Shown one piece after another: positions 2,954 through 52,119 of a DNA stretch of 64,000 nt. The notes under the pieces were generated by a model. That model worked only from the letters and a program-made list of their open reading frames with translations. It ran no database searches and was not told the DNA's origin. A program made the translations under genes and the position numbers. Within the stretch, counting starts at the first letter, position 1. Every line of letters starts with the position of its first letter. Source of the stretch: Teredinibacter turnerae T7901 (lineage in GTDB: Bacteria; Pseudomonadota; Gammaproteobacteria; Pseudomonadales; Cellvibrionaceae); NCBI RefSeq assembly GCF_000023025.1, contig NC_012997.1:4151125-4215124 (forward strand), given 5' to 3'.

Positions 2954-3112
2954 CCGATATTTTTCTTATGTTTTTTTACGAAATTGCGCATTCCCCAATG
3001 TGTGCGCAATTCGCGTTTTCTGCATCTTACCATTCTGTCGGAATTTTTCGAGACACAAACCTGTTATGCTCGATAACAAAAATAAATTCAGTTCATGCGA
3101 GGAGTTTTACTG

Positions 3113-5242
3113 GTGAAAACGCGTGTAATTAACCTACTGTTTACCGGTATCGTGATAGCGGGGTTAAGCGGTTGCGGCGGTTCCCAAAGCGACACTTTTA
3201 CCAGTGATCCGGTGCCGACGCCTACGGCCGCCGCATCGCCCGCGCCAACACCGTCTATTTCACCTGAACCATCACCGCAGCCATCACCGTCGCCATCACC
3301 ACAGCCAACACCGACTGGAACGCCAACACCTACACCTACACTGTCACCAACACCCACGCCATCGGTTACCCCCACTACGGCAGCCAGTCCAGAGCCTTCA
3401 GCGAGTCCAGAGCCTTCAGCCAGTCCAGAGCCTTCAGCGAGTCCAGGGCCAACACCCAGCCCAGAGCCTTCAGCGAGTCCAGGGCCAACACCCAGCCCAG
3501 AACCCACACCCAGTGCCGAACCCACGGTTGCACCGCTGCAACCTGATACCACTGCCGATCCCTCCCTGCCACTGCCTGGCGATTCCGACTATGCGGCAGC
3601 GCAGTCTGCCGCGCGTTTGCTGGATCAGGCCACCTTCGGCACAACGGCAAAAACACTGGTTGCAGCCATGGAGAAATCCCGCGAGCAGTGGTTAGATGAA
3701 CAAGTAGCACTGCCGCAAACCCTGCATCTGCCGTTACTCGATGAACGGCTGACAGAGATCGGTTTTGAACCGGCACCCGAAGTGGAAAAGGACGATGAAG
3801 GCTGGGTGCGCGATATTCAGCGCAGCGATATCTGGTGGGAATCGGCCGTTTGGGGGCAGGATCAACTGCGCCAACGGGTGGCCTATGCGCTCAGCCAGAT
3901 ACTGGTTATTTCCAATGTATCCGACGTGCTCTACAACGATTCCCGCGGCATCGCCAACTACCACGATATTCTTGCCGCGCATGCGTTCGGCAATTATCGC
4001 GACCTGCTAAAAGCGGTTACGCTCAACCCCATGATGGGCGAATACCTGAGCATGGTGCGCAACGAAAAAGCCGATGCACAACGCAATATTCGCCCAGACG
4101 AAAATTACGCGCGCGAAGTTATGCAACTCTTCTCCATCGGGTTGGTACAACTGAATATCGATGGCTCACCGGTATTGGATAACCAACAACAACCCGTGCC
4201 CACCTATGGTCAGGACGACATAAAAAATCTCGCCCGTGTATTCACCGGCTGGAACCACGCAACCATTAACCAGTGGTGGGAGTGGGCCAGCAGCGGCGCA
4301 GCGGAAATTCTGCCGATGAAGGCCTTCCCTGCCTATCACGATACCGGGAGTAAAACCCTGTTCAGCGACAAGAGCATCCCCGCCGATTTAACCCCGGAGC
4401 AGGACATAGACGCGGCACTGGATATTCTCTTTGCACACAGCAATATCGCCCCCTTTATAAGTAAGCAATTGATCCAACGGCTCATTACCAGCAACCCCAG
4501 CCCAGACTATGTTGCGCGGGTTGCCAGCGTATTTAACGATAATGGCGCTGGCGAAAAAGGCGATTTAAAAGCCGTTATAAAAGCAATATACCTCGACGAC
4601 GAAGCGATAAATGGCCCGACCCTGGCGCCCACCACCTTTGGTAAATTGCGCGAACCACTGTTAAAAGTGACCGGCTTGTGGCGAGCGTTTAAAGCCCAGG
4701 GTATTCCCGTGCGAGAAAACAATGGCAGCCTGTCACTAAACCGACTGCGCTTTCGTGGCTCCGACCGGGAAATGGGGCAACGGCCTTACGGCTCTTTTTC
4801 GGTGTTTAACTTCTACCGACCCGATTATCAGCAACCGGGCGAAATTAAAAACAACGATTTAATCGCGCCCGAATTTCAAATAATGACCGACAGCCAACTG
4901 GTGTCCTCCATCAGCCGGTTGAGCGGCAGTATTTTTTGGCGCGACACAAAAAATGCCTGGCCGCAAAGCGAATTAACGAACCCCGATAACCAGCCAAAAG
5001 CGGATTGGGATTTATACCCGGCGCAATTATTTCTTGAAGAAGAAAAACAACTGGCAAATGACCCCTCAGCATTAGTAGAGCGCCTGAACCTTTTACTTTT
5101 GCATGGCACCATGTCCACGCAATTGCGCGCCACTATTATCGACTTTATTACCGAGTTCCAGCCCTACTCGTCCGCCGAAATGCGCGTGTATGACGCGCTG
5201 GTGTTAGTGATGGCCTCCCCCGAATACGCAATTCAAAGGTAA
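3113..5242 (+). CDS. DUF1800 family lipoprotein with Pro-rich linker
   Basis: A large DUF1800 protein of unknown biochemical role, in a family usually encoded next to DUF1501 proteins. I place the start at GTG 3113 because a GCGAGGAG Shine-Dalgarno lies just before it; an in-frame ATG at 3095 would put that signal inside the gene. The N-terminus is a lipoprotein signal (GLSGC), followed by about 130 residues of Pro/Thr/Ser/Glu linker including PEPSAS-type repeats, then the DUF1800 domain from about residue 170 to the end (ARLLDQATFG near its start, YAREVMQLFSIG and NLARVFTGW in the middle). The stop is 4 bases from the DUF1501 start, so the two are co-transcribed. The linker resembles those that hold secreted catalytic domains away from the cell. 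Confidence 0.9.
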   Translation: MKTRVINLLFTGIVIAGLSGCGGSQSDTFTSDPVPTPTAAASPAPTPSISPEPSPQPSPSPSPQPTPTGTPTPTPTLSPTPTPSVTPTTAASPEPSASPEPSASPEPSASPGPTPSPEPSASPGPTPSPEPTPSAEPTVAPLQPDTTADPSLPLPGDSDYAAAQSAARLLDQATFGTTAKTLVAAMEKSREQWLDEQVALPQTLHLPLLDERLTEIGFEPAPEVEKDDEGWVRDIQRSDIWWESAVWGQDQLRQRVAYALSQILVISNVSDVLYNDSRGIANYHDILAAHAFGNYRDLLKAVTLNPMMGEYLSMVRNEKADAQRNIRPDENYAREVMQLFSIGLVQLNIDGSPVLDNQQQPVPTYGQDDIKNLARVFTGWNHATINQWWEWASSGAAEILPMKAFPAYHDTGSKTLFSDKSIPADLTPEQDIDAALDILFAHSNIAPFISKQLIQRLITSNPSPDYVARVASVFNDNGAGEKGDLKAVIKAIYLDDEAINGPTLAPTTFGKLREPLLKVTGLWRAFKAQGIPVRENNGSLSLNRLRFRGSDREMGQRPYGSFSVFNFYRPDYQQPGEIKNNDLIAPEFQIMTDSQLVSSISRLSGSIFWRDTKNAWPQSELTNPDNQPKADWDLYPAQLFLEEEKQLANDPSALVERLNLLLLHGTMSTQLRATIIDFITEFQPYSSAEMRVYDALVLVMASPEYAIQR
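3384..3520 (+). repeat. Coding minisatellite: PEPSAS/PGPTPS repeats
   Basis: Tandem copies of an 18-base unit (agtccagagccttcagcg and variants with ccagggccaacaccc) encode the SPEPSA/SPGPTP linker of the DUF1800 lipoprotein. The unit length is a multiple of three, so copy-number changes keep frame and would change only tether length. Confidence 0.8.
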
Positions 5243-5246
5243 GCGC

Positions 5247-6623
5247 ATGAATACCACTCTCAACCGTCGCCACTTTTTACAACGGGCAGCCACACTGGCC
5301 CTGGGTAGCTCCAGCGCCATGGCAACACTGAGCCGACTGCAATTGGCCCATGCGCAAACTGCCGGGCAGAGCGATTACAAAGCACTGGTGTGCGTATTCC
5401 TTTTTGGTGGTAACGATGCGTTCAATATGGTGGTGCCGCGCAGCACAACGGAGTACGCCGCCTATTCCGCAACGCGACAATCGCTGGCCGTGCCACAAAA
5501 TGAGCTTATCGCCATCGACGGCCAGCAAAACAATGGTGCCGAGTACGGTTTGCACCCGGCGCTCGCCGATCTTGCGCAACTGTACTCGAACAATAAACTG
5601 GCAATATTAGGCAACGTGGGTGCGCTTATCGAACCCACCAGCAAAATCGCCTATCAGGCAAAAACTGCCGCGCTGCCGCCGCAACTTTTCTCGCACAACG
5701 ACCAGCAAAATTTTTTACAGAGTTTGCAGAGCACACAAAAACGCAACGGCTGGGCCGGGCGCGCCGCGGACTTGATGCACTCGCTAAATAACAACCCTCG
5801 TTTATCGATGAATATATCGCTAAACGGCAGCAACCTCTGGCAAGCCGGGGCAGACGTTGTACCTTATTCAGTTAACCCCGAAGGGGTGGGCACCATCAAC
5901 GCCATGGACCGCAAAGCAAGCGCGACAGAGAACGGATGGGAACACAGCCGCGTTGCTGCCTTTCAGGCCATACTCGCGCAACAGCAAAACCATATTTTAG
6001 CCCGCAACTACGCCGAGCATATGAATCGCGCCTGGGATCTTTCGGAGGAAGTCGGCGATGCGGTAGCCGCCTCAGCCCAAATACAAACCCTGTTTCCGGA
6101 AGACAACCGCCTTGCCGCCGGGCTAAAGATGACCGCCAAACTGATTGCTGCTCGCGATAGCTTAAACGTATCCCGCCAGACATTTTTTGTTGGCATGGGC
6201 GATTTCGATACCCACGGCGATCAAAATCGCCGCCAAAGTCTGCTGATGTCGCAACTTAATGACGGGCTCGCCGCATTTTACAACGCTCTGGAAGAGCTGG
6301 GCGTTGCAGACAAAGTTACCACCTTCACCATGTCCGATTTCGGCCGCACACTGACCAGCAACGGCGACGGCACCGACCACGGCTGGGGCGGCCACCACTT
6401 TATTATCGGCGACGCGGTCGCTGGAGGGCGAATTTACGGCACCATGCCCGACCTGGCCATAGGCAGTAACGACGACATGGGCGAGGGCCGAATAATTCCA
6501 ACCACCAGCATCGACCAATACGCAGCCACCCTCAGCGGCTGGTTCGGCCTACCCGGCAGCGCCTACGCGGATGTGTTCCCTAACCTGGCGAATTTTGACG
6601 TTACTGATTTGGGGTTTTTATAG
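5247..6623 (+). CDS. DUF1501 family secreted protein with Tat-type signal
   Basis: A 458-residue DUF1501 protein, a relative of the sulfatase/alkaline phosphatase fold whose activity is not established. The N-terminus carries a twin-arginine-like motif (NRRHFLQ) and a hydrophobic stretch ending near AHAQT, consistent with Tat export. Family landmarks are VFLFGGNDAFNMVVPRS near the start, GMGDFDTHGDQN in the middle, FTMSDFGRTLTSNGDGTDHGWGGHH later and a SYADVFPNL-like end. It follows the DUF1800 gene by 4 bases, the usual partnership. A degraded second copy of its last 120 codons and its 3' flank lies at 17405-17812. Confidence 0.92.
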   Translation: MNTTLNRRHFLQRAATLALGSSSAMATLSRLQLAHAQTAGQSDYKALVCVFLFGGNDAFNMVVPRSTTEYAAYSATRQSLAVPQNELIAIDGQQNNGAEYGLHPALADLAQLYSNNKLAILGNVGALIEPTSKIAYQAKTAALPPQLFSHNDQQNFLQSLQSTQKRNGWAGRAADLMHSLNNNPRLSMNISLNGSNLWQAGADVVPYSVNPEGVGTINAMDRKASATENGWEHSRVAAFQAILAQQQNHILARNYAEHMNRAWDLSEEVGDAVAASAQIQTLFPEDNRLAAGLKMTAKLIAARDSLNVSRQTFFVGMGDFDTHGDQNRRQSLLMSQLNDGLAAFYNALEELGVADKVTTFTMSDFGRTLTSNGDGTDHGWGGHHFIIGDAVAGGRIYGTMPDLAIGSNDDMGEGRIIPTTSIDQYAATLSGWFGLPGSAYADVFPNLANFDVTDLGFL

Positions 6624-43726: not shown

Positions 43727-44263
43727 TCATTCAGCATCGCGCACCAGGCGAACCATCTTAGCGCGGATTCGCTCATCATAGGTGGGCGCGCCATTGGCGT
43801 AATCCACATACCATGAATAGTGGGTGTAAAAATGGTATGGAGAAGAAGACCACACTTGCGCGGCTGGGGTTCCCGGAAACAGCGCCAAGTTTATCGCCGG
43901 TTGTTCGCACTGCATTTCCACGAGCGTGGATAATTCGCGGATATTTGCGAGGCGCCAGTCCGTATGGCCAGCAAAGCCGCCGTCCGCATTGAGTCCTGGC
44001 GCAACCTGAAGCGCTTCTGCCCAGGTCATTGCTCGGGGTTCTCCGTCGCTGCAGTTTGGCCCCGTTGCCCCCGCTAAACACGTCATCCACATTAAGCGGG
44101 TGCGGCTGTCGGTCACTGTACCGTCACCGTTTTCTGCAAAAAATTCTGTCGACATGGTCGCGGGAATATTTTCTGCTTGGCATCGCTGCTCGGGCGAGTC
44201 TTGTGCAATGGCGCGGCCAATCAAACCGAAGAATGCACACACCAATAAGGTTCTTATAATCAT
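43727..44263 (-). CDS. DUF1566 domain secreted protein
   Basis: A 178-residue exported protein (signal MIIRTLLVCAFFGLIGRAIAQ, start ATG 44263). The DUF1566 signature is TDSRTRLMWMTCLAG, AMTWAEALQVAP, GHTDWRLANIRELSTLVE, and VWSSSPYHFY near the end with VRLVRDAE as terminus. These Lcl-type domains are found on adhesive or extracellular proteins. It follows a second DUF1566 protein by a few bases, so they are one unit. Confidence 0.85.
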   Translation of the reverse strand: MIIRTLLVCAFFGLIGRAIAQDSPEQRCQAENIPATMSTEFFAENGDGTVTDSRTRLMWMTCLAGATGPNCSDGEPRAMTWAEALQVAPGLNADGGFAGHTDWRLANIRELSTLVEMQCEQPAINLALFPGTPAAQVWSSSPYHFYTHYSWYVDYANGAPTYDERIRAKMVRLVRDAE

Positions 44264-44295
44264 CGAATCAACCTCGGAAACGTTAACCACAAACG

Positions 44296-45138
44296 CTATG
44301 GGGACGAAGGCGCGTCGCGTACCAGCCGCACAAAGCGACTATTGTTGCGCTGAAGTGGCGCGCTGTAGCCGAACTGAAAGCTGACCGCCCATGCACTGGT
44401 AGGCTTGCCCACGACAGGGGAGCTACTCCAATAAAAATCGTTTTGCGTATGGGAAAAGAATTCGCCGTCCACGGCTGGCCGCGACACACCAAAATTCACC
44501 AGGCTCTGCAATTCCTGCAGACTGGGCAAACGCCAGTCGGTATACCCGCACAAACCAGCTGCATTTACCCGTTCGACGAATTCACCGGTGTTGCAATAGG
44601 TCGCCGGGCTGCTTTTGTTATAGCCTGCGCACTGATCATATTTTTGGTTCCATTCGCCGACCGCGCCGCCATTGGCGGCCACTTGCCCGCTGTACCAGGT
44701 GAAGCGATCGTCGGCATCGTGTAGACCACCGTTGCCGTTTTGATCGTCGGCACTAACTTTGGCTTCCCACATTAATCCGCTGACATTATCGCGAACACAG
44801 TGCCATTCTTTGGCCGACTCTGAGAGTGTTTTACCGGTACTGCTGATTTTGCTATAGGAAAAACCATTGTCGCTGCCATAAAGCGTATCGCGGCCACGCA
44901 TGCAATCCTGCTGCGCAAGAATATCGCCCTGCGCAAGATCACCCTCAGGTAGTTTTTCAGCATTGATTACGGCACTGCAATCCTGGTTTATGTCCTTCGG
45001 GTAATTTCCACCCCAGGTAATACCCGTATCATTCAGTTTGCGCTGGCTTGCGGTGAGATCTGGCCCGGGCTCCGGCTGGCATGCCGCCAAGAGTACACCG
45101 GCGGAAAACAGCAGGCCGAGTGTTGGTAGAGTTTTCAT
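44296..45138 (-). CDS. DUF1566 domain lipoprotein
   Basis: A 280-residue lipoprotein (MKTLPTLGLLFSAGVLLAAC, lipobox LAAC). DUF1566 motifs follow: VRDNVSGLMWEAKVS, GYTDWRLPSLQELQSLVNFG, FYWSSSPVVG and FVRLVRDAP. Its N-terminal part holds paired cysteines (QDCSAV, QQDCMRG, WHCVRD). It lies after a terminator that ends the DUF1552 transcript and probably has its own promoter in 45139-45204. Confidence 0.85.
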   Translation of the reverse strand: MKTLPTLGLLFSAGVLLAACQPEPGPDLTASQRKLNDTGITWGGNYPKDINQDCSAVINAEKLPEGDLAQGDILAQQDCMRGRDTLYGSDNGFSYSKISSTGKTLSESAKEWHCVRDNVSGLMWEAKVSADDQNGNGGLHDADDRFTWYSGQVAANGGAVGEWNQKYDQCAGYNKSSPATYCNTGEFVERVNAAGLCGYTDWRLPSLQELQSLVNFGVSRPAVDGEFFSHTQNDFYWSSSPVVGKPTSAWAVSFQFGYSAPLQRNNSRFVRLVRDAPSSP

Positions 45139-45204: not shown

Positions 45205-45228
45205 AAAAAACCCGGCTCAAGGCCGGGT
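45205..45228 (-). terminator. Rho-independent terminator after the DUF1552 gene
   Basis: ACCCGGC / GCCGGGT arms around a 5-base loop run into TTTTTT on the minus strand, 20 bases after the DUF1552 stop. It separates the giant protein-DUF1552 transcript from the DUF1566 pair. Confidence 0.9.
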
Positions 45229-45247
45229 CTGTCTTGCAAAACACGAA

Positions 45248-46492
45248 TCAGGTCAGCACCCCAGGAATTACATCCGTTTCGTAACGCTGATACACGGAAG
45301 ACTGGTGTGCATTCAGCGCAACTGCGGCAGTGTGGATCATGTTGAGCGGCGTGTAGCCCGCGCCACCGGCGTTAGACACGCCGCGCTGAATAGCGCCACC
45401 GCCGCCGGCCATAATCAACGGCACATCGCCGTTACCGTGCGCATCGCCGTTACCCATATCAGTCACTTCACACACAACGGTGTCATCCAGAACACCACGA
45501 TCGCGAAGCGCCTTAATGGTGTATGCCGAGAGGCTACTCATATGGTTGCGCGTCTCGCTGAAGTGTGGGTAACTCGGATCACCATTGTTACCGCCGTGAA
45601 TTGACGCATGGTAAATACCGCTAAAGTTCAGATAAGGGAATGCGAACTCGCCCTGGTGGTTACCAAACGCCAGCGACGCTGACGCGGTGAGGTTACAGGA
45701 GAACGCGAGCGCGATGATGTCTGCCTGCAGATTCGCCTGCTGCTCGAAGGTATCGTACTCCAGTGCGAAGGGGGCTGGTGCGCTGCCGGCACTACACGAC
45801 AAGCCGCCGCCAAGATCCGCCAGCCGCGCTTCGGTTTCTTCGATGGCGGTGAGGTGAGAATCCAAGCGCTGACGCTCGTAGTTGCCCAGCTTGCTGTTCA
45901 GAGCACTTAATGCGTCTTTGTGCGCATCGATCACACTGCCCTTACCACCGGTATTACCGCCGCCACCGCCAAGATTGCCAAACAGGCGATCAAACGCGTT
46001 GAAGGGGTTATCTTCAAACGGAACTTCCGCACCGTTATCCTTAGTCAGGTAGCCGTGGCCATTACTGTGCACACCGAGGTTGATGTAGGTAAACGGCATG
46101 CCGTCACTCAGAATCCGCCCCATATTCACATCAAAACTGTCACCACCCCAGCTGTTGTTGATGATGGTGGGTACAACACCGTGTCCACCGCGATGGTGAC
46201 CCATACTGCGGAGGAAGTTACAGTCGCTCGCCACGGTACTGTAGGGCTGCGACATAATCGGGAATGACGTGAGGTTGCTGTTTGGCAACCAGCGGGATGG
46301 GATACAACCGTCCGGACAATAGATGACCAGCGATTTACTCGGCCCATTCTGCGCTTCAGCCAGGCGGGAGAGCATCATCCCCCCTACCAGCGGCGACGCA
46401 TTCATGAGCCCGCGCGAGATTCCTGCCGAAGATAAGACTTTCAGGAAATCACGGCGCTTCTTGTCGAACTTATTCTTATATGGCTTTTTCAT
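45248..46492 (-). CDS. DUF1552 family secreted protein
   Basis: A 414-residue DUF1552 protein. The N-terminus carries a twin-arginine-like motif (KKRRDFLKVLSSAG) and a hydrophobic segment, so Tat export is likely. Family stretches are VIYCPDGCIPSRWLPN, FLRSMGHHRGGHG, PFTYINLGVHSNGHG, IHGGNNGDPSYPHF and VVCEVTDMGNGDAHGNGDVPLI, a layout reminiscent of DUF1501 and the alkaline phosphatase fold. It follows the giant DUF1592-type protein, its constant partner. Enzymatic role unknown. Confidence 0.9.
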   Translation of the reverse strand: MKKPYKNKFDKKRRDFLKVLSSAGISRGLMNASPLVGGMMLSRLAEAQNGPSKSLVIYCPDGCIPSRWLPNSNLTSFPIMSQPYSTVASDCNFLRSMGHHRGGHGVVPTIINNSWGGDSFDVNMGRILSDGMPFTYINLGVHSNGHGYLTKDNGAEVPFEDNPFNAFDRLFGNLGGGGGNTGGKGSVIDAHKDALSALNSKLGNYERQRLDSHLTAIEETEARLADLGGGLSCSAGSAPAPFALEYDTFEQQANLQADIIALAFSCNLTASASLAFGNHQGEFAFPYLNFSGIYHASIHGGNNGDPSYPHFSETRNHMSSLSAYTIKALRDRGVLDDTVVCEVTDMGNGDAHGNGDVPLIMAGGGGAIQRGVSNAGGAGYTPLNMIHTAAVALNAHQSSVYQRYETDVIPGVLT

Positions 46493-46539
46493 GATCTTAA
46501 CCTTTCAAAATATGGGGTCACAATTGGGAGCCTGCCAAT

Positions 46540-46559
46540 GCGGCGGCCTCGGCCGCCGC
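46540..46559. other. GC-rich stem between the giant gene and DUF1552
   Basis: GCGGCGGCC / GGCCGCCGC, a perfect 9-bp stem with a 2-base centre, lies between the two genes on the shared minus-strand transcript. Without a U-run it probably works as an mRNA processing or stability element that lets the two cistrons be expressed at different levels. Confidence 0.6.
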
Positions 46560-46569
46560 GCTCAGGCGA

Positions 46570-49500
46570 TTAGTTGCTGCGAGACCAGGCTTTGCGGTAG
46601 CGCACTGCGTCCATAACGCTCATGCTCTCCAGCATCGCTCTTGGGCTCTGCTCCATCATTGTGTTTGTCAGGTCGCGAACCTCACAGGCGTAGCCGTTTT
46701 GCTCGGTGGCAGTCAAGGTCGGACCTTCCAGGTCGTCGTTGTCGATACCATCAATACCCACACCGGTGATAAACCGGAACAGGTTCTGCGGCACACACTG
46801 CTGCACATTGGGCAGATCGACGAGGACATGGCCTAGACCTTTGGTGCCCTGGAAGTCGATAGATACGTCCTTATCGTTGAGGTTCTCTGGTGCGTATAGC
46901 TGACCAACCGAGTCGATAACGTTGCCACGCAAATCGGTGGTGCGCACATTACCAACGGGGTCGAAGTCTTCCATACCGAAGCCCAGTGGGTTGATCCATT
47001 CACGGTGACAAACCTGACAGTTGTCGTCGCCAGTAACCGCGGCGTACTTCATGCGGTTGGTGGTTGTCGGCTCGGCCAGGTAATCCGCAAGCTCTTCCAA
47101 CTTGGCTGCCCGGTCGGCGAATACACCGGCAGGTGGCTCAGGCTGATCTTCACAGAGCATGCGACGACGCACCCGTACCGAACGGCGAATTGGCGAGGTT
47201 TCCACCTCTTCCGCCCAGCGCGCCATGAAGGCACCGTTCGCCAGAATACCGCCGCGGTTGGTGGTATTCACCATCTGGAAGTTGCTGCCGCTTACGCCGT
47301 TAATGCCGTAGTGCTGCGCCAGTGGACCGTTGACGAAGGTGTAGTTCGCATCGTAAAGCGAGCTGAACTGTTCGTTCTCATCCAACATTACGTGGGCAAA
47401 CACTTCGCGAATTTCCTGCTTGAGGTGTGGAATCACGGCATCGAAGTTCGGCCAGGTAGCGGGATCTTTCGGCGCGCTCTCCAGGTGCTCGGTATCCAGC
47501 CAGTGAGCAACGAAGTCACCCATGCGGTCGCGAACGGCACTGGTGTTCAGCAGACGATCTGCCTCCGCCAAAATGTCGGACTCGGTGCGCAACTGGTTGT
47601 TCACGGCTTTCTGCCAGGTAGTGTTGTCTGGCGCGGAACCTGTGTAGGTGTAGCTCAACCAGGTGGCCATTTCGTAGGAGGTCAGCTCGTACGAATCGCT
47701 GTCCAGACCATTGCTGGTACTGGGCACACCGATCTCACTGCGATACAGGAACTGCGGTGAAGACAACGCGGCTTCCAGCGCGAGCTGAATACCGGCTTTC
47801 ACATCACCCCCGGTTTGCGAGCCGTTCGCCATGCTGCTGTATGTCGTGCTTTCTCCGCCCTCAAGTGGGCGACGGAAAATGCGCGGCAGCAGGTTGTTGA
47901 CGAACTGGTTGGCACAGGTCTGGTTGAAGTTGCCGTTACAGGTCAGGATCGCATTAAAGTTGGTGTCGGCAGACCACTGGGCAATATCTTCAGCAACCGA
48001 TAAATAACTGTCGTAACTGTTATTTACCACTGATGAGTGGGTGTTGTTGACGAAGTAGCCAATGATATTGTCAGCCGCCAGGCCAGTGGAAGCGTTGAAA
48101 TCCACACCCAGTAGGTCTTCGACTGAGTGCTGATACTCTTCACGAGTTAACAGTTTTAGCTGACGGGCACCATAGGTCACCGGATCGTTACACACCAACT
48201 GCTGGCTGTCGTTCCAGAAAGTCGCTTCAAGGAAGTCGACAATCTTATCGGCACACTCCTGATCACACGCAGAAGGCATATTGCGCGGCATTTCTGCTGC
48301 AATATAGGCTGCCATTGTGGTCTTATCGCGCGCTGTATTCAGCGATATGCCAATCGAACCACCGCCTGCGTCGGCACCGTGACAGCTCGCGCACTGCGCA
48401 GAGTACTCCTGTTCGCCCGTTAACGCGCTGCCCGAGCTTGAGGAGCTGGAGCTGCTGGAGGACGAACTGCTGGAGCTACTGCTCGAGGAGGAGCTGCTGG
48501 AGTTTCCACCACCCGGGCCATAACACACAGGCGCCGTAATGTTGTTGTTGTGGTTACCTTGCATGCCAAAGCTGGTGTTGCCGCCATTCGCGCTCAGGTT
48601 GCCGTTCCAGCCTACGTTGGAGGCGGTGACGGTGTTGCCACTTTCAACCAGGGTCGCGCTCCACGAACCTGTCAATTGTGGGTTCTGAGCGAACTCGAGG
48701 GTAATTTCCCAGCCGTTTGTTGGCGTATTTCCGTTGTTAGTAACGGTAATCTCCAACTGATAGCCAGTACCCCAGTTGTTGACGATGGCTGCATCACAGG
48801 TCACCCCGCCGCTGGAGCTGCTGCCGGAACCGGAGCTGCTGGAGGACGAAGACGAGCTGGAGCTGCTGGATGAACTGGAGCTACTGGACGACGAGGATGA
48901 GCTGGATGTACCACCGTTCTCAGGAACCAGTTTGTAAAGTTCTCCAAGGTAGTTCACTACAAACAGCTCGCCGTTGTTAGCTTCACCAAACGACGAAATG
49001 TAGAAGTTGGTATCAAAGAGCTCTTCACGGGTGTAAGAACCATCGCTCTCACGGGTTACCGCCCAGATGCGACCAGACTGATAGTCACCCATGATGTACT
49101 GGCCATTACGTCCACCGATCGCGCTACCGCGATACACGTAACCACCGGTAATCGACTGGGAGATACCGTGATCCAACTCCATGATTGGATCGACATAAGG
49201 TCCACTGGTATTACAGCTATTGCTGGTGACGTGGAAACCTTCGTAGCAGCGCCAACCGTAGTTGCCACCCGCTTCGATGATATTCACTTCTTCCCAGGTC
49301 GCCTGACCCACATCCGACAACCAGAGTTCGCCCGTTTGACGGTCAAAACTCCAGCGCCAGGGGTTGCGCAACCCGTAGACGTAAATCTCGTCGAGCACGT
49401 TGTTGTTACCAACAAAGGGGTTATCGCTAGGTACGCTGTAGGTAGAGCCACTATCCACGTCGATACGAATCATGGTACCGAAGTAGTTGGTGGTGTTCTG

Positions 49501-52119
49501 CGCAGCGTTCTGTGGGTCGTTGGCGGAACCACCGTCACCGAATGCCGCGTACAGATAACCGTCCGGACCAAAGTGGATGTCACCACCATTGTGGTTTGAG
49601 TAGGTCTGCTCGAATGAGAAGATATCCTGCCGTGAACCACTGACCAGACTGCGACCGTCAGACGACTCGGTGTAGCGAGCAATTACAGAGGTCATCGGAT
49701 TAGACGCCGGTGTAGTCATGGATATGAATACACTGTTATTGGCGGGATAATCCGGATGGAACGCCATACCAAGCACACCGCCCTCGTTCTCGGAGTCAAC
49801 GACGTTGGACAAATCGAGATAGAGGTTTTTAGTCGTGGTGTTCTCGTTGTTCGCATCTATCCAGTAGATTCGGCCATCTTTCTCCAGAACATACCAGCGG
49901 GAGTTATCGCCAGGCGCCTGCAACATACCAAGCGGCGAATCGAACGTCATGTTCGGGAACGCACGCTCAATTTCCACAGGTTCAGGATCGCCACCTGGGT
50001 TGTTGTTGCCGCCACCATTCGCACCAGTAACGTCCAGGTCAACACTCCACACGCGCTGGGCACCTGTGATGTACAGGGTTTTACCATCAACACCACCAAA
50101 AGTTGCATTGGTCACATTGGCAGAAACGTTGATTGTCGCAATCTGGTTACCTGAAGGTGTGAACACCGATACGCGCTGGCCATTGTGTTCAGCCACGTAG
50201 AGGTTACCGTGACAGTCAACCGTCATACCGTCCGGGTTGTTCAGGCTGCTGACCAGTACTTCCGGTGCGCCTACCTGACCGTTGCCCGCAATCGGGTACA
50301 GCAACAGCTGACCGGAAGAAGAACCGACGTACAGGGTGTCTTCATCAGGCGAAAGCGCGATACCGTTTGGATTGTTGAGTGAGCTATCAATCAGGGTGAC
50401 ATTGCCATTAGGTGCAACACTGTAAACACCCGTATAAGGCTGTCCACCGGTGTTACCCTGCTGGTAATTCGGATCGGTAAAGTAGATGGTGCCATTGCTC
50501 GCGATCACCAGGTCGTTCGGCGAATTGAACACATTGCCATTGTAACTTGACGCCACAGTGCTGCGCGTGCCGTTGGCGAGGTTATAGCGCGAGAGGCCAC
50601 TATATTTGTGGGTCGCCGCAATCACTTCACCGTTACCGGCATAGGCCATACCATTGCTGCCCGCATCGTTGATTTGCGTGCTCATTTGGCCGTTCGCTGA
50701 AAGCTTCTGGATGCGAGAGCTGTAATTGGCATCGAACAGGAAGTCGGAGAAGTACAACGCCCCGTCAACCCACACAGGCCCTTCGTACAGTCCGCTGCGA
50801 TTTCCGTTGGCTCCAGGAATCGCGCTAGCAGTCATGGTACCAGAAGGCGCCGCGCCACAATTGCCACCCACCATGCCCGAGCTGGAAGAGCTGGAACTGC
50901 TGGAGGACGAACTGGACGAGCTCGAGCTGGACGAACTTGAGCTGCTCGAAGAGGAGCTGGAGCTGTTGGACGAACTGCTGGAGGACGAGCTGGAGCTGGA
51001 TGACGAAGTAGAACCGTTGCCACCGCCCGTCTCACGGGAATCACAACTGATGGGCTGGTCAGAAATTTCGATATCATCCATCCACACATCAGCATTGTTG
51101 TTACTGAAGCTGTGCCAACCGAAGAAGGCATAGTTCAGTTTGCCATCCAACCACTGAGTGTTGCCATTCACACCGCCATTGTTCCAATCGCTGATGGAGT
51201 CAATGGAGTGGATCAACTGATTATCCAGGTAGGCGTGCAGCTGATGGTATGGGCGATTGCCGCCGAGCATTTCCACCACAACACAATGCCAGGTGTCAGC
51301 CGCTATCTCAGGACCGCTGTACCACTGACTCTGGGGCGGAGAAATGTCATCGCTAGGCATTTCGTTGGTGCCTACGTGACCTTTGATCTGGCCAAAGCGC
51401 ACTTCGTTGTCGGCCTGAGCGACATTGCCGCGCACACCGAAAATATGCTCGTGGTTATCGCCAGCTTCGTTACCGAGCTTCTTGCTCATGTAAACCATTG
51501 CTTTCAGATAAACCTTATCGAGCCCGGCAGGCAGAGTGCGAACAATCTGCGCAGGGGCTGCACCGCCCTTGAAGTGCACAGAGTTGTTACCGGTAAATGC
51601 CCGCGTGTTATCAACCAGCGCATAGACACTCTGGCCGATATTGTTGTTCGGATTATTGGACTGCCAGCCAACAAAGTTGCCCCAACCGCTGGGCTGCTGA
51701 TTTACGCCGGTGGATTCAAAACCATCGGTAAAGTTAATCAGGCTGCCACCGGAACTTGACGAACTGCTGGAAGAACTCGAAGAACTGGAACCTCCGTTCG
51801 AAGAGGAGGATGAGCTGCTTGACGAGCTGCTGGAAGAACTGGAACTGCTGGATGAACTGGACGAAGTGCTGCTGTTAGAGCCACCACAGTCGCCACGCGG
51901 ACCACCACCGCCAGTCTGGCTGTTACAGGTATTAATACCTATACAGCTGGAATTGTTTTCCCACCCCCAACCATTATCTGTGTTTTCACACATTGGCCAG
52001 GAGTAGCCATACCATTCACACTCACAGGATTGCGCCTGCGCTTGGGAGACCGAGAAGATCGACAGCGTGAGCGTCGCTGCGAGCAACCGTCGGCTCAATT
52101 TGAATGGGATATTATTCAT
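46570..52119 (-). CDS. Giant secreted cellulose-binding multiredox protein: CBM10-X-SMP30-GSDH-CBM2-cyt c-DUF1592-type
   Basis: About 1849 residues from ATG 52119 (the frame opens at 52152; the signal NNIPFKLSRRLLAATLTLSI...AQA fits the later start). Domains in order: CBM10 (about 32-78; CEWYGYSWPMC, NGWGWE); poly-Ser; a jelly-roll-like unknown module (127-360; KVYLKAMVYMSKKL, MDDIEISD end); poly-Ser; SMP-30/gluconolactonase-type propeller (422-705; EGPVW, NPNGIALSPDEDTL); glucose/sorbosone dehydrogenase-type propeller (716-1070; GLRNPWRWSFD, YSNHNGGDIHFGPDG), PQQ-dependent in relatives; poly-Ser; CBM2 with end cysteines C1108/C1199; poly-Ser; cytochrome c (CASCH at 1243-1247); then the DUF1587/1595/1592/1588/1585 series (LLTREEYQHSVEDLLG onward) with a second heme motif CQVCH at 1701-1705. 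It suggests a sugar- or lactone-oxidising, electron-carrying enzyme held on cellulose, perhaps supplying lytic polysaccharide monooxygenases. Co-transcribed with DUF1552. Confidence 0.9.
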   Translation of the reverse strand: MNNIPFKLSRRLLAATLTLSIFSVSQAQAQSCECEWYGYSWPMCENTDNGWGWENNSSCIGINTCNSQTGGGGPRGDCGGSNSSTSSSSSSSSSSSSSSSSSSSSSSNGGSSSSSSSSSSSSSGGSLINFTDGFESTGVNQQPSGWGNFVGWQSNNPNNNIGQSVYALVDNTRAFTGNNSVHFKGGAAPAQIVRTLPAGLDKVYLKAMVYMSKKLGNEAGDNHEHIFGVRGNVAQADNEVRFGQIKGHVGTNEMPSDDISPPQSQWYSGPEIAADTWHCVVVEMLGGNRPYHQLHAYLDNQLIHSIDSISDWNNGGVNGNTQWLDGKLNYAFFGWHSFSNNNADVWMDDIEISDQPISCDSRETGGGNGSTSSSSSSSSSSSSSNSSSSSSSSSSSSSSSSSSSSSSSSSSSSSGMVGGNCGAAPSGTMTASAIPGANGNRSGLYEGPVWVDGALYFSDFLFDANYSSRIQKLSANGQMSTQINDAGSNGMAYAGNGEVIAATHKYSGLSRYNLANGTRSTVASSYNGNVFNSPNDLVIASNGTIYFTDPNYQQGNTGGQPYTGVYSVAPNGNVTLIDSSLNNPNGIALSPDEDTLYVGSSSGQLLLYPIAGNGQVGAPEVLVSSLNNPDGMTVDCHGNLYVAEHNGQRVSVFTPSGNQIATINVSANVTNATFGGVDGKTLYITGAQRVWSVDLDVTGANGGGNNNPGGDPEPVEIERAFPNMTFDSPLGMLQAPGDNSRWYVLEKDGRIYWIDANNENTTTKNLYLDLSNVVDSENEGGVLGMAFHPDYPANNSVFISMTTPASNPMTSVIARYTESSDGRSLVSGSRQDIFSFEQTYSNHNGGDIHFGPDGYLYAAFGDGGSANDPQNAAQNTTNYFGTMIRIDVDSGSTYSVPSDNPFVGNNNVLDEIYVYGLRNPWRWSFDRQTGELWLSDVGQATWEEVNIIEAGGNYGWRCYEGFHVTSNSCNTSGPYVDPIMELDHGISQSITGGYVYRGSAIGGRNGQYIMGDYQSGRIWAVTRESDGSYTREELFDTNFYISSFGEANNGELFVVNYLGELYKLVPENGGTSSSSSSSSSSSSSSSSSSSSSSSSSGSGSSSSGGVTCDAAIVNNWGTGYQLEITVTNNGNTPTNGWEITLEFAQNPQLTGSWSATLVESGNTVTASNVGWNGNLSANGGNTSFGMQGNHNNNITAPVCYGPGGGNSSSSSSSSSSSSSSSSSSSSSSSGSALTGEQEYSAQCASCHGADAGGGSIGISLNTARDKTTMAAYIAAEMPRNMPSACDQECADKIVDFLEATFWNDSQQLVCNDPVTYGARQLKLLTREEYQHSVEDLLGVDFNASTGLAADNIIGYFVNNTHSSVVNNSYDSYLSVAEDIAQWSADTNFNAILTCNGNFNQTCANQFVNNLLPRIFRRPLEGGESTTYSSMANGSQTGGDVKAGIQLALEAALSSPQFLYRSEIGVPSTSNGLDSDSYELTSYEMATWLSYTYTGSAPDNTTWQKAVNNQLRTESDILAEADRLLNTSAVRDRMGDFVAHWLDTEHLESAPKDPATWPNFDAVIPHLKQEIREVFAHVMLDENEQFSSLYDANYTFVNGPLAQHYGINGVSGSNFQMVNTTNRGGILANGAFMARWAEEVETSPIRRSVRVRRRMLCEDQPEPPAGVFADRAAKLEELADYLAEPTTTNRMKYAAVTGDDNCQVCHREWINPLGFGMEDFDPVGNVRTTDLRGNVIDSVGQLYAPENLNDKDVSIDFQGTKGLGHVLVDLPNVQQCVPQNLFRFITGVGIDGIDNDDLEGPTLTATEQNGYACEVRDLTNTMMEQSPRAMLESMSVMDAVRYRKAWSRSN

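What the first reader, a model, noticed from the sequence alone, without database searches (positions are those of the whole stretch)
45248..52119. Giant cellulose-bound redox protein with DUF1552 partner: a candidate undescribed oxidative system
One polypeptide joins two cellulose-binding modules (CBM10, CBM2), two propeller oxidoreductase-type domains (SMP-30 and glucose/sorbosone dehydrogenase-like), a class I cytochrome c, and the DUF1587-1585 series with another CxxCH. The transcript continues with a Tat-exported DUF1552 protein. Known: Cellvibrio multi-domain redox proteins are implicated in feeding electrons to lytic polysaccharide monooxygenases. Inference: this protein oxidises cello-sugars at the fibre surface and passes electrons through its hemes to LPMOs or to the cell; DUF1592/DUF1552 would be the unknown redox or maturation part.
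Basis: partly seen in the sequence, partly recalled or inferred. Interest (0 to 1): 0.88.

Follow-up and report, generated by a model that had tools for sequence, protein, structure and literature searches.

The report
Cellulose-bound heme protein and obligate partner
The giant cellulose-binding heme protein is a shipworm-symbiont protein that others have already partly studied, but comparison of related genomes shows that it comes with an overlooked partner protein next door, which may explain why its isolated pieces have shown so little activity.

Summary
A DUF1552 gene with a Tat-like signal follows 77 nt later. DUF1585 was not detected.

The protein is not undescribed. Its X122 equals crystallised TtX122A of TERTU_3803 (Teredinibacter turnerae) at 236/236 residues. 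The PQQ idea is weakened: the published SGL-GSDH pair bound no PQQ and oxidised no glucose, pqqC was not found in this genome, and the GSDH profile scores best against Hedgehog-interacting protein.

What looks new is the partner. In 68 loci found with X132 alone, 70 of 70 X132 genes are followed by DUF1552; so is cbp2D of Cellvibrio japonicus. The held main texts of four cellulose papers do not mention it. DUF1552 is predicted to have a sulfatase-like fold with four invariant histidines, one perhaps at the nucleophile position, which suggests a metal-redox rather than a hydrolase site. X132 has no convincing solved fold relative. The mechanism remains inference.

The parts
46570..52119 (-). 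Giant redox protein with N-terminal signal-like segment, 1849 aa, TERTU_3803-type: CBM10-X122-SGL-GSDH-CBM2-X183-X132, with four Ser-rich linkers
51940..52023 (-). CBM10
   Evidence: Pfam 24.1 bits, cut-off 23; 1e8r E 1.3e-8
51031..51738 (-). X122, Cip1-like jelly roll; identical to crystallised TtX122A
50059..50784 (-). SMP-30/gluconolactonase-like propeller (SGL)
   Evidence: Pfam E 3.8e-43
48955..49941 (-). GSDH-type propeller (X173), scoring higher with Hedgehog-interacting protein than with PQQ enzymes
48529..48801 (-). CBM2
   Evidence: Pfam E 5.5e-21
48229..48426 (-). X183 cytochrome c, CASCH, with a conserved Met as probable sixth ligand
46573..48192 (-). X132: PSD3-PSD5-PSD4-PSCyt3 with CQVCH; no convincing solved fold relative
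46493..46569 (-). 77-nt spacer with an 8-bp G+C hairpin without a T run
45248..46492 (-). DUF1552 (HXXSHH) protein, Tat-like signal, predicted AlkP/sulfatase-like fold, four invariant His (104, 295, 299, 352)
45208..45230 (-). terminator-like hairpin after DUF1552
   Evidence: consensus match only; 7 such sites in the region against 10.7 in shuffles, so not above chance as a class
44296..45138 (-). Lcl_C protein, conserved neighbour
43727..44290 (-). second Lcl_C protein, conserved neighbour

Best explanation
The locus encodes a cellulose-tethered electron-transfer complex of two obligate parts. The giant protein is the scaffold: CBM10 and CBM2 hold it on cellulose, X122 and the two propellers are recognition or docking modules rather than PQQ enzymes, and X183 plus the heme of X132 form an electron path. 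The Tat-exported DUF1552 protein docks on X132 and supplies a second redox site, a metal held by four histidines in a sulfatase-like fold that has lost its nucleophile. Together they would move electrons between a substrate at the cellulose surface (or an LPMO or oxygen) and the heme chain. Shown here: domains, obligate gene pairing, invariant histidines, predicted folds. Inferred: heme in X132, the metal, the docking, the direction of electron flow and the substrate.
For: DUF1552 follows X132 on the same strand in 70 of 70 X132 genes in 68 loci found by scanning with X132 only, in 3 of 3 own-genome copies and 47 nt after cbp2D in the genome identified as C. japonicus. Of 120 family genomes DUF1552 is in 69 and PSD4 above cut-off in the same 69. 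In 86 of 86 aligned DUF1552 proteins the only invariant residues, apart from the Arg pair on which rows were trimmed, are one Gly and four His. Fold match to sulfatases and LtaS, best E 5.3e-7, 66 matches at E<=0.001. Published: cbp2D or cbp2E deletion impairs growth on filter paper while lpmo10B deletion grows like wild type; E. coli with a six-gene set that included cbp2E and cbp2D, but for which no DUF1552 gene is listed, did not grow on any of three insoluble celluloses; a 99.8% identical TERTU_3803 homologue is in the secretome of cellulose-grown cells.
Against: No experiment that I found touches DUF1552. TM-scores to the listed matches are low (0.25-0.44) with rmsd of 8-16 A. Profile comparison with sulfatases supports only the C-terminal half (prob 91.6, 88 columns); the N-terminal half, where the nucleophile lies, gave nothing (prob 0.4), and the window's own protein lacks the [TSAR]G residues that set the register in its relatives. 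No atomic coordinates were available, so the histidines were not seen to cluster. Gene pairing alone fits a chaperone as well. TtX183 domains did not drive the LPMO and lost electrons quickly to oxygen. The E. coli failure has other explanations, which its authors give (poor activity or export).
Confidence: 0.42

Rival explanations
1. One reading: the propellers are PQQ sugar dehydrogenases that oxidise cello-sugars and feed electrons through the hemes to LPMOs, as in fungal AA12.
For: GSDH match at E 2.7e-50; NHNGG in 9 of 9 and G[LF]RNP in 9 of 9 aligned GSDH domains; the genome has one AA10 LPMO match, identical to TtAA10 (6rw7) at 204 of 205 aligned residues, the mismatch being the last; CjX183 can activate LPMO (PMC8981238, abstract).
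Against: No PQQ binding, with or without calcium, and no glucose dehydrogenase activity of the pf08450-X173 pair (PMC10916295); pqqC not found; best profile match is HHIP, 144.8 bits, against 100.7 for the best bacterial GSDH and 89.8 for soluble glucose dehydrogenase; only 12 of 70 X132 ORFs carry a GSDH domain (7 of the 70 are cut at the left end of their locus).
Confidence: 0.12
2. DUF1552 is a maturation or folding factor for the X132 heme domain, exported by Tat, and not part of the working complex.
For: Strict pairing and gene order; Tat-like signal; in published work the full-length proteins could not be made in E. coli and X132 is not among the domains reported as purified.
Against: Four histidines stay invariant although identity to the window protein falls to 20%, which looks like an active or metal site; two loci (L088, L126) have a second DUF1552 in tandem.
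Confidence: 0.2
3. DUF1552 is a hydrolase (sulfatase, phosphatase or phosphodiesterase) that removes substituents from polysaccharide while X132 does separate redox work.
For: Predicted fold and C-terminal profile similarity to sulfatases including the Asp-x-Gly motif.
Against: An invariant His lies where the motif register puts the sulfatase Cys: in 21 of 46 proteins not of the SIH type (23 of 86 overall) residues +9/+10 are [TSAR]G, background 2.6%; the residues after the first strand that I take for the sulfatase Asp pair are mostly Pro (73 of 86) and Gly/Asn/Asp.
Confidence: 0.1
4. Long-range electron export: the hemes carry respiratory electrons out of the cell or into the shipworm gut, independent of cellulose chemistry, as PMC10916295 suggests in its conclusions.
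For: The sister cassette in this genome (L009) is X183x3-X122-X132, DUF1552, thioredoxin-like, DUF3570, ApbE; the last three also follow DUF1552 in L118, L121 and L130; DUF3570 is flavinylated by ApbE (PMC8238504, passages).
Against: CBM10 and CBM2 and the cbp2D cellulose phenotype point to cellulose; no ApbE set was seen beside this locus.
Confidence: 0.16

Closest known systems
TERTU_3803 of Teredinibacter turnerae (PMC10916295)
   Same: X122 identical over 236 residues; same list of modules: CBM10, CBM2, X122, pf08450, X173, X183, X132
   Different: No difference seen; only X122 could be compared residue by residue. The paper's main text as held has no hit for DUF1552, operon or neighbour; its supplement was not read
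Cbp2D/Cbp2E of Cellvibrio japonicus (PMC12542752, PMC8981238)
   Same: CBM2, X183 and X132 in Cbp2D; DUF1552 gene 47 nt downstream of cbp2D with the same four His
   Different: Cbp2D has YceI/X158 and FN3 and no X122-SGL-GSDH; a separate Cbp2E precedes it
PSCyt3/PSD proteins of Planctomycetes and Verrucomicrobia (PMC5615132, passages)
   Same: PSD and PSCyt3 domains; PSCyt2 and PSCyt3 genes usually next to two families of unknown genes
   Different: The CBMs listed there are other families, and the proteins were predicted periplasmic or cytoplasmic
Alkaline phosphatase/sulfatase superfamily
   Same: Predicted fold of DUF1552
   Different: Nucleophile position probably His; putative first-strand Asp ligands not conserved
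Fungal AA12 PQQ pyranose dehydrogenase (CcPDH)
   Same: GSDH-type propeller, cytochrome and CBM in one chain (PMC12055684, passages)
   Different: Little sequence similarity according to that paper; no PQQ binding shown for the T. turnerae pair

Membership tests
TERTU_3803/Cbp2D-type X183-X132 proteins | X183 cytochrome c with CxxCH and Met ligand | tested here: met
   CxxCH at aa 1243; in the 40-row alignment the two Cys are kept in 36 and 37, the His in 38 (the rest gaps), the Met in 39; fold match to 8q1v at prob 1.00, E 0.04
TERTU_3803/Cbp2D-type X183-X132 proteins | C-terminal X132 with its own CxxCH | tested here: met
   CQVCH at aa 1701; C472, C475, H476 invariant in 40 of 40
TERTU_3803/Cbp2D-type X183-X132 proteins | heme actually bound by X132 | not testable with these tools
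   needs spectroscopy
PQQ-dependent GSDH (AA12-like) | Pfam GSDH model | tested here: met
   E 2.7e-50
PQQ-dependent GSDH (AA12-like) | NCBIfam TIGR03606 cut-off | tested here: not met
   97.7 against 434.55 bits
PQQ-dependent GSDH (AA12-like) | PQQ binding and sugar oxidation | not testable with these tools
   published negative for PQQ and glucose with the T. turnerae pair
PQQ-dependent GSDH (AA12-like) | own PQQ synthesis | tested here: not met
   pqqC in 0 of 1 own genome; 7 of 56 class genomes as positive control. Only pqqC was searched; external PQQ is not excluded
DUF1552 (HXXSHH) | Pfam PF07586 cut-off | tested here: met
   139.4 bits, cut-off 30
DUF1552 (HXXSHH) | the name-giving HxxSHH motif | tested here: not met
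   HASIHG here; the YHxSIH form is shared by 37 of 67 relatives. Membership rests on the Pfam model, not on this motif
AlkP superfamily | fold | tested here: met
   66 PDB matches at E<=0.001, but TM 0.25-0.44 in the 50 rows shown
AlkP superfamily | Ser/Thr/Cys nucleophile | tested here: inconclusive
   motif register puts an invariant His there; profile alignment of that half failed; no coordinates

The most novel reading that the evidence does not exclude
DUF1552 is a new class of metal oxidoreductase grown out of the sulfatase fold by replacing the catalytic Cys with His, and together with the heme domain X132, itself a new fold, it attacks cellulose oxidatively without an LPMO. The same two-part unit, present in tens of copies in some genomes and also in Planctomycetota, would be a widespread unrecognised oxidative polysaccharide system.
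Probability: 0.15. Interest if true: 0.93.

Novelty: new variant of a known kind. Interest (0 to 1): 0.62.

Why it matters
Cbp2D and Cbp2E are important for growth on insoluble cellulose, and their authors suspect a new cutting mechanism, yet the published biochemistry that I read used single domains or domain pairs, and the E. coli gene set lists no DUF1552 gene. If X132 needs DUF1552 beside it, that work lacked half of the system. One gene deletion and one co-expression would test it. The answer would also give a first function to families that reach about 30 copies in single genomes (PSD4 32 in G028, 29 in G056).

Tried and rejected
PQQ sugar dehydrogenase: rejected as main explanation. Common origin of X132 and DUF1800, suggested by one open frame of G040 that matches both Pfam models: profile comparison gave prob 0.4 against 0.1-0.2 for unrelated controls, not support, so left open. 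DUF1501 as a bridge between DUF1552 and sulfatases: DUF1552-DUF1501 aligned only in the C-terminal half (prob 89.3), DUF1501-sulfatase not at all (prob 2.1) (11 of 19 intended DUF1501 loci passed my ORF filter). Global profile alignment of DUF1552 with sulfatases failed. A genome scan with a diverse DUF1552 alignment found no usable stretch; the scan was then run with X132, which is the better test because it is not conditioned on DUF1552. Its two peptide patterns are narrow, so the 68 loci are mostly Gammaproteobacteria and not a census. Recalled, not from a call: the metal ligands of alkaline phosphatase, the catalytic role of the sulfatase Cys, the Tat consensus, and that the genome lengths of the window's genome and of G064 fit T. 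turnerae and C. japonicus.

Full report
OBSERVATION. The window holds, on the minus strand, a 1849-aa ORF from ATG 52119 (open to TTG 52152) to 46570 and, 77 nt later, a 414-aa ORF 46492-45248. Pfam confirms GSDH, SGL, CBM_2, Cytochrome_CBB3, PSD3, PSD5, PSD4 and PSCyt3 in the first and DUF1552 in the second; CBM_10 is marginal (24.1 vs 23 bits) and DUF1585 was not found. The two CxxCH are at aa 1243 and 1701, and four Ser-rich stretches of 25-46 residues separate modules.

WHAT IT IS. The X122 domain is identical over 236 of 236 aligned residues to PDB 8q28, TtX122A of TERTU_3803. The one AA10 LPMO match of the genome equals 6rw7 at 204 of 205 aligned residues. In a second locus (L009, TERTU_2913-like) the first X183 equals 8q1v over 85 residues, the X122 differs from 8q2a at 3 of 238 and the second X183 from 8q1w at 5 of 82, my counts from the printed alignments. 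So the window comes from T. turnerae or a very close relative, not necessarily the crystallised strain, and the giant protein is TERTU_3803 or a strain copy. PMC10916295 (introduction, results 2.1-2.7 and conclusions read) describes this protein with CBM10, CBM2, X122, pf08450, X173, X183 and X132. It reports that the pf08450-X173 pair bound no PQQ and had no glucose dehydrogenase activity, that X122 showed no clear enzyme activity or binding, and that three X183 domains of TERTU_2913 did not drive the LPMO. PMC12055684 (passages) reports a 99.8% identical homologue in the secretome of cellulose-grown cells.

THE PQQ IDEA. pqqC (TIGR02111) was not found in the single-contig genome. That search first rang in no control, so it was repeated over 56 genomes of the class, where it matched in 7 (6 over cut-off) and again not in this genome. 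The profile of nine GSDH domains scores Hedgehog-interacting protein highest (144.8 bits), then 2g8s (100.7), 3a9g (95.1), 7cdy (91.7) and soluble glucose dehydrogenase (89.8). Four GSDH matches lie in three open frames of the genome. External PQQ and other quinones are not excluded.

THE PARTNER. The genome has three PSD4 and three DUF1552 matches, in three adjacent same-strand pairs. In 120 genomes of the family DUF1552 is in 69; PSD4 is in 70, of which 69 over cut-off, and by the printed tables these are the same 69 genomes; the extra one, G044, has E 9.9e-4. For 63 of the 69 (six with large or capped counts dropped) copy numbers are equal in 53 and correlate at r=0.955; in the 24 genomes whose PSD4 matches were all printed, 30 of 30 printed DUF1552 matches lie 758-2658 bp downstream of a PSD4 match on the same strand. 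A scan of genome contigs with X132 (alignment A2) gave 68 loci with 70 X132 ORFs. All 70 are followed on the same strand by DUF1552, whose open frame begins no more than 155 nt after the X132 stop or overlaps it; in 3 the DUF1552 ORF is cut by the end of the locus. Four Planctomycetota and two Deltaproteobacteria loci are among them. The selection did not use DUF1552. Two loci (L088, L126) have a second DUF1552 in tandem, so there are 72 DUF1552 ORFs.

ARRANGEMENTS. By my domain calls, 12 of 68 loci have X132 fused to GSDH, as here; 28 have CBM2 with X132 but no GSDH; 25 have no CBM2 detected in the X132 protein (some are cut by contig ends); 3 have the DUF3570/ApbE set. In the split form I scanned the protein before X132 in seven loci (L070, L080, L083, L085, L103, L108, L114): CBM2 and YceI are in 7 of 7, PKD domains in three, GH5 cellulase in two and a Cip1-like domain in one by Pfam. 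Its X183 equals 7b21, C. japonicus Cbp2D, at 86 of 88 residues, the mismatches being the last two, so I take it for C. japonicus. The held main texts have no DUF1552: PMC10916295, PMC12542752, PMC8981238 and PMC12055684; supplements were not opened. In fused-GSDH loci both Lcl_C proteins have matches beside DUF1552 in 11 of 12, in L074-L076 within one open frame; the twelfth has only 1035 bp of flank. Over all loci 17 of 68 have both; in L080, L087 and L097 they lie on the other strand and in L101 some 5-6 kb upstream; 11 of the 68 have less than 2 kb after DUF1552. A terminator-like hairpin lies between DUF1552 and the Lcl_C genes here, but such sites are no more frequent in the region than in shuffles (7 vs 10.7), so the transcript limits are open.

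FOLDS. The DUF1552 model (55 sequences: the window and 54 of the 67 usable relatives; pLDDT 85.2) matches alkaline-phosphatase-superfamily enzymes: steroid sulfatase 1p49 E 5.3e-7, choline sulfatase, LtaS; 66 matches at E<=0.001; in the 50 rows shown TM is 0.25-0.44 and rmsd 8-16 A, so the match is of the fold type only. Profile comparison with 14 sulfatases (of 24 fetched loci; those with the motif that I searched for) supports the C-terminal half: prob 91.6 over 88 columns, with Asp345-Met346-Gly in register with Asp-Asn-Gly. The N-terminal half did not align. Invariant in 86 of 86 DUF1552 proteins, apart from the Arg pair on which rows were trimmed, are Gly62 and four His: 104, 295, 299, 352 (the 86 are the 55 plus 31 from genome-search loci, rows with X dropped). 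His104 opens a helix in the model. In 21 of 46 proteins not of the SIH type, and in 23 of 86 overall, residues 9 and 10 after it are [TSAR]G, against 2.6% at other positions of the 46; the window's own protein does not have this. Planctomycetota read HMRGIGCLLTG where sulfatases read CTPSRAGLLTG. My reading is that the nucleophile was replaced by a metal-binding His. That is inference; no coordinates could be read. The X183-X132 model (40 sequences, pLDDT 89.1) has 0 matches at E<=0.001; all matches with a probability above 0.2 are cytochrome c structures aligned over 70-95 columns, led by TtX183A (E 0.04, prob 1.00). X132 is therefore probably a new fold for a heme protein.

FUNCTION. PMC12542752 (abstract and sections 13, 14, 15, 19, 20, 22 read) shows that cbp2D and cbp2E are upregulated on filter paper, that their single deletions lag while lpmo10B deletion grows like wild type, and that adding either deletion to a quadruple mutant abolishes growth; the authors propose a direct cut by a Cbp2D/E heterodimer. 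E. coli W with cel6A, cbp2E, cbp2D, lpmo10B, cel3B and cel5B grew on soluble CMC, as it did with three genes lacking cbp2D/E, but not on filter paper or two swollen celluloses; the authors name poor activity of Lpmo10B or Cbp2D/E and uncertain export as causes. The absence of DUF1552 from that set is a further possible cause, my inference. PMC5615132 (passages) notes that PSCyt3 genes are usually next to unknown genes in Verrucomicrobia; the search listing counts DUF1552 three times in that record but the main text as held does not name it, so the general pairing may already be known to those authors. I propose that the missing component in the cellulose systems is DUF1552 and that X132-DUF1552 is a two-site redox unit anchored here to cellulose. 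Chaperone and electron-export readings remain open.

NOVELTY. The polypeptide is published. The strict partnership and its extension to cbp2D, the conserved Lcl_C neighbours, the predicted DUF1552 fold with four invariant His and the lack of a fold relative of X132 were not found in print in searches, read as listings. They cover only open-licence PubMed Central papers; one search matched 242 papers, 25 listed, nearly all on an unrelated term PSD4.

Noticed in passing
window 3095-5242 and 5247-6623 (+): A DUF1800 gene followed 4 nt later by a DUF1501 gene: a second pair of a large partner and a possible relative of DUF1552 in the same window.
   Followed up: partly
window 43727-45138 (-): Two Lcl_C proteins conserved beside DUF1552 in 11 of 12 fused-GSDH loci, on the opposite strand in three other loci.
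   Followed up: partly
L009:3860-12354: Sister cassette of the same genome (TERTU_2913-like): X183x3-X122-X132, DUF1552, thioredoxin-like, DUF3570, ApbE; the last three also follow DUF1552 in L118, L121 and L130.
   Followed up: partly
L008:5456-11759: Third own pair, a PSD protein without detected CBM and a DUF1552 with the canonical HxxSHH, followed by ankyrin-repeat, cytochrome c'-like and b561-like genes (the last three named by eye, no domain search).
   Followed up: no
L103:5165-8206 and L114:5642-8542: GH5 cellulase fused with CBM2 and YceI (in L103 also a Cip1-like domain) in the gene before an X132 gene.
   Followed up: no
window 46493-46569 (-): Spacer hairpin without T run between the giant gene and DUF1552, folding z-score -2.48 (4 of 200 shuffles as good).
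   Followed up: partly
G040:C1:1261800-1262801 (-): One 641-aa open frame matches both PSD4 and the DUF1800 model; common origin not confirmed by profile comparison.
   Followed up: partly
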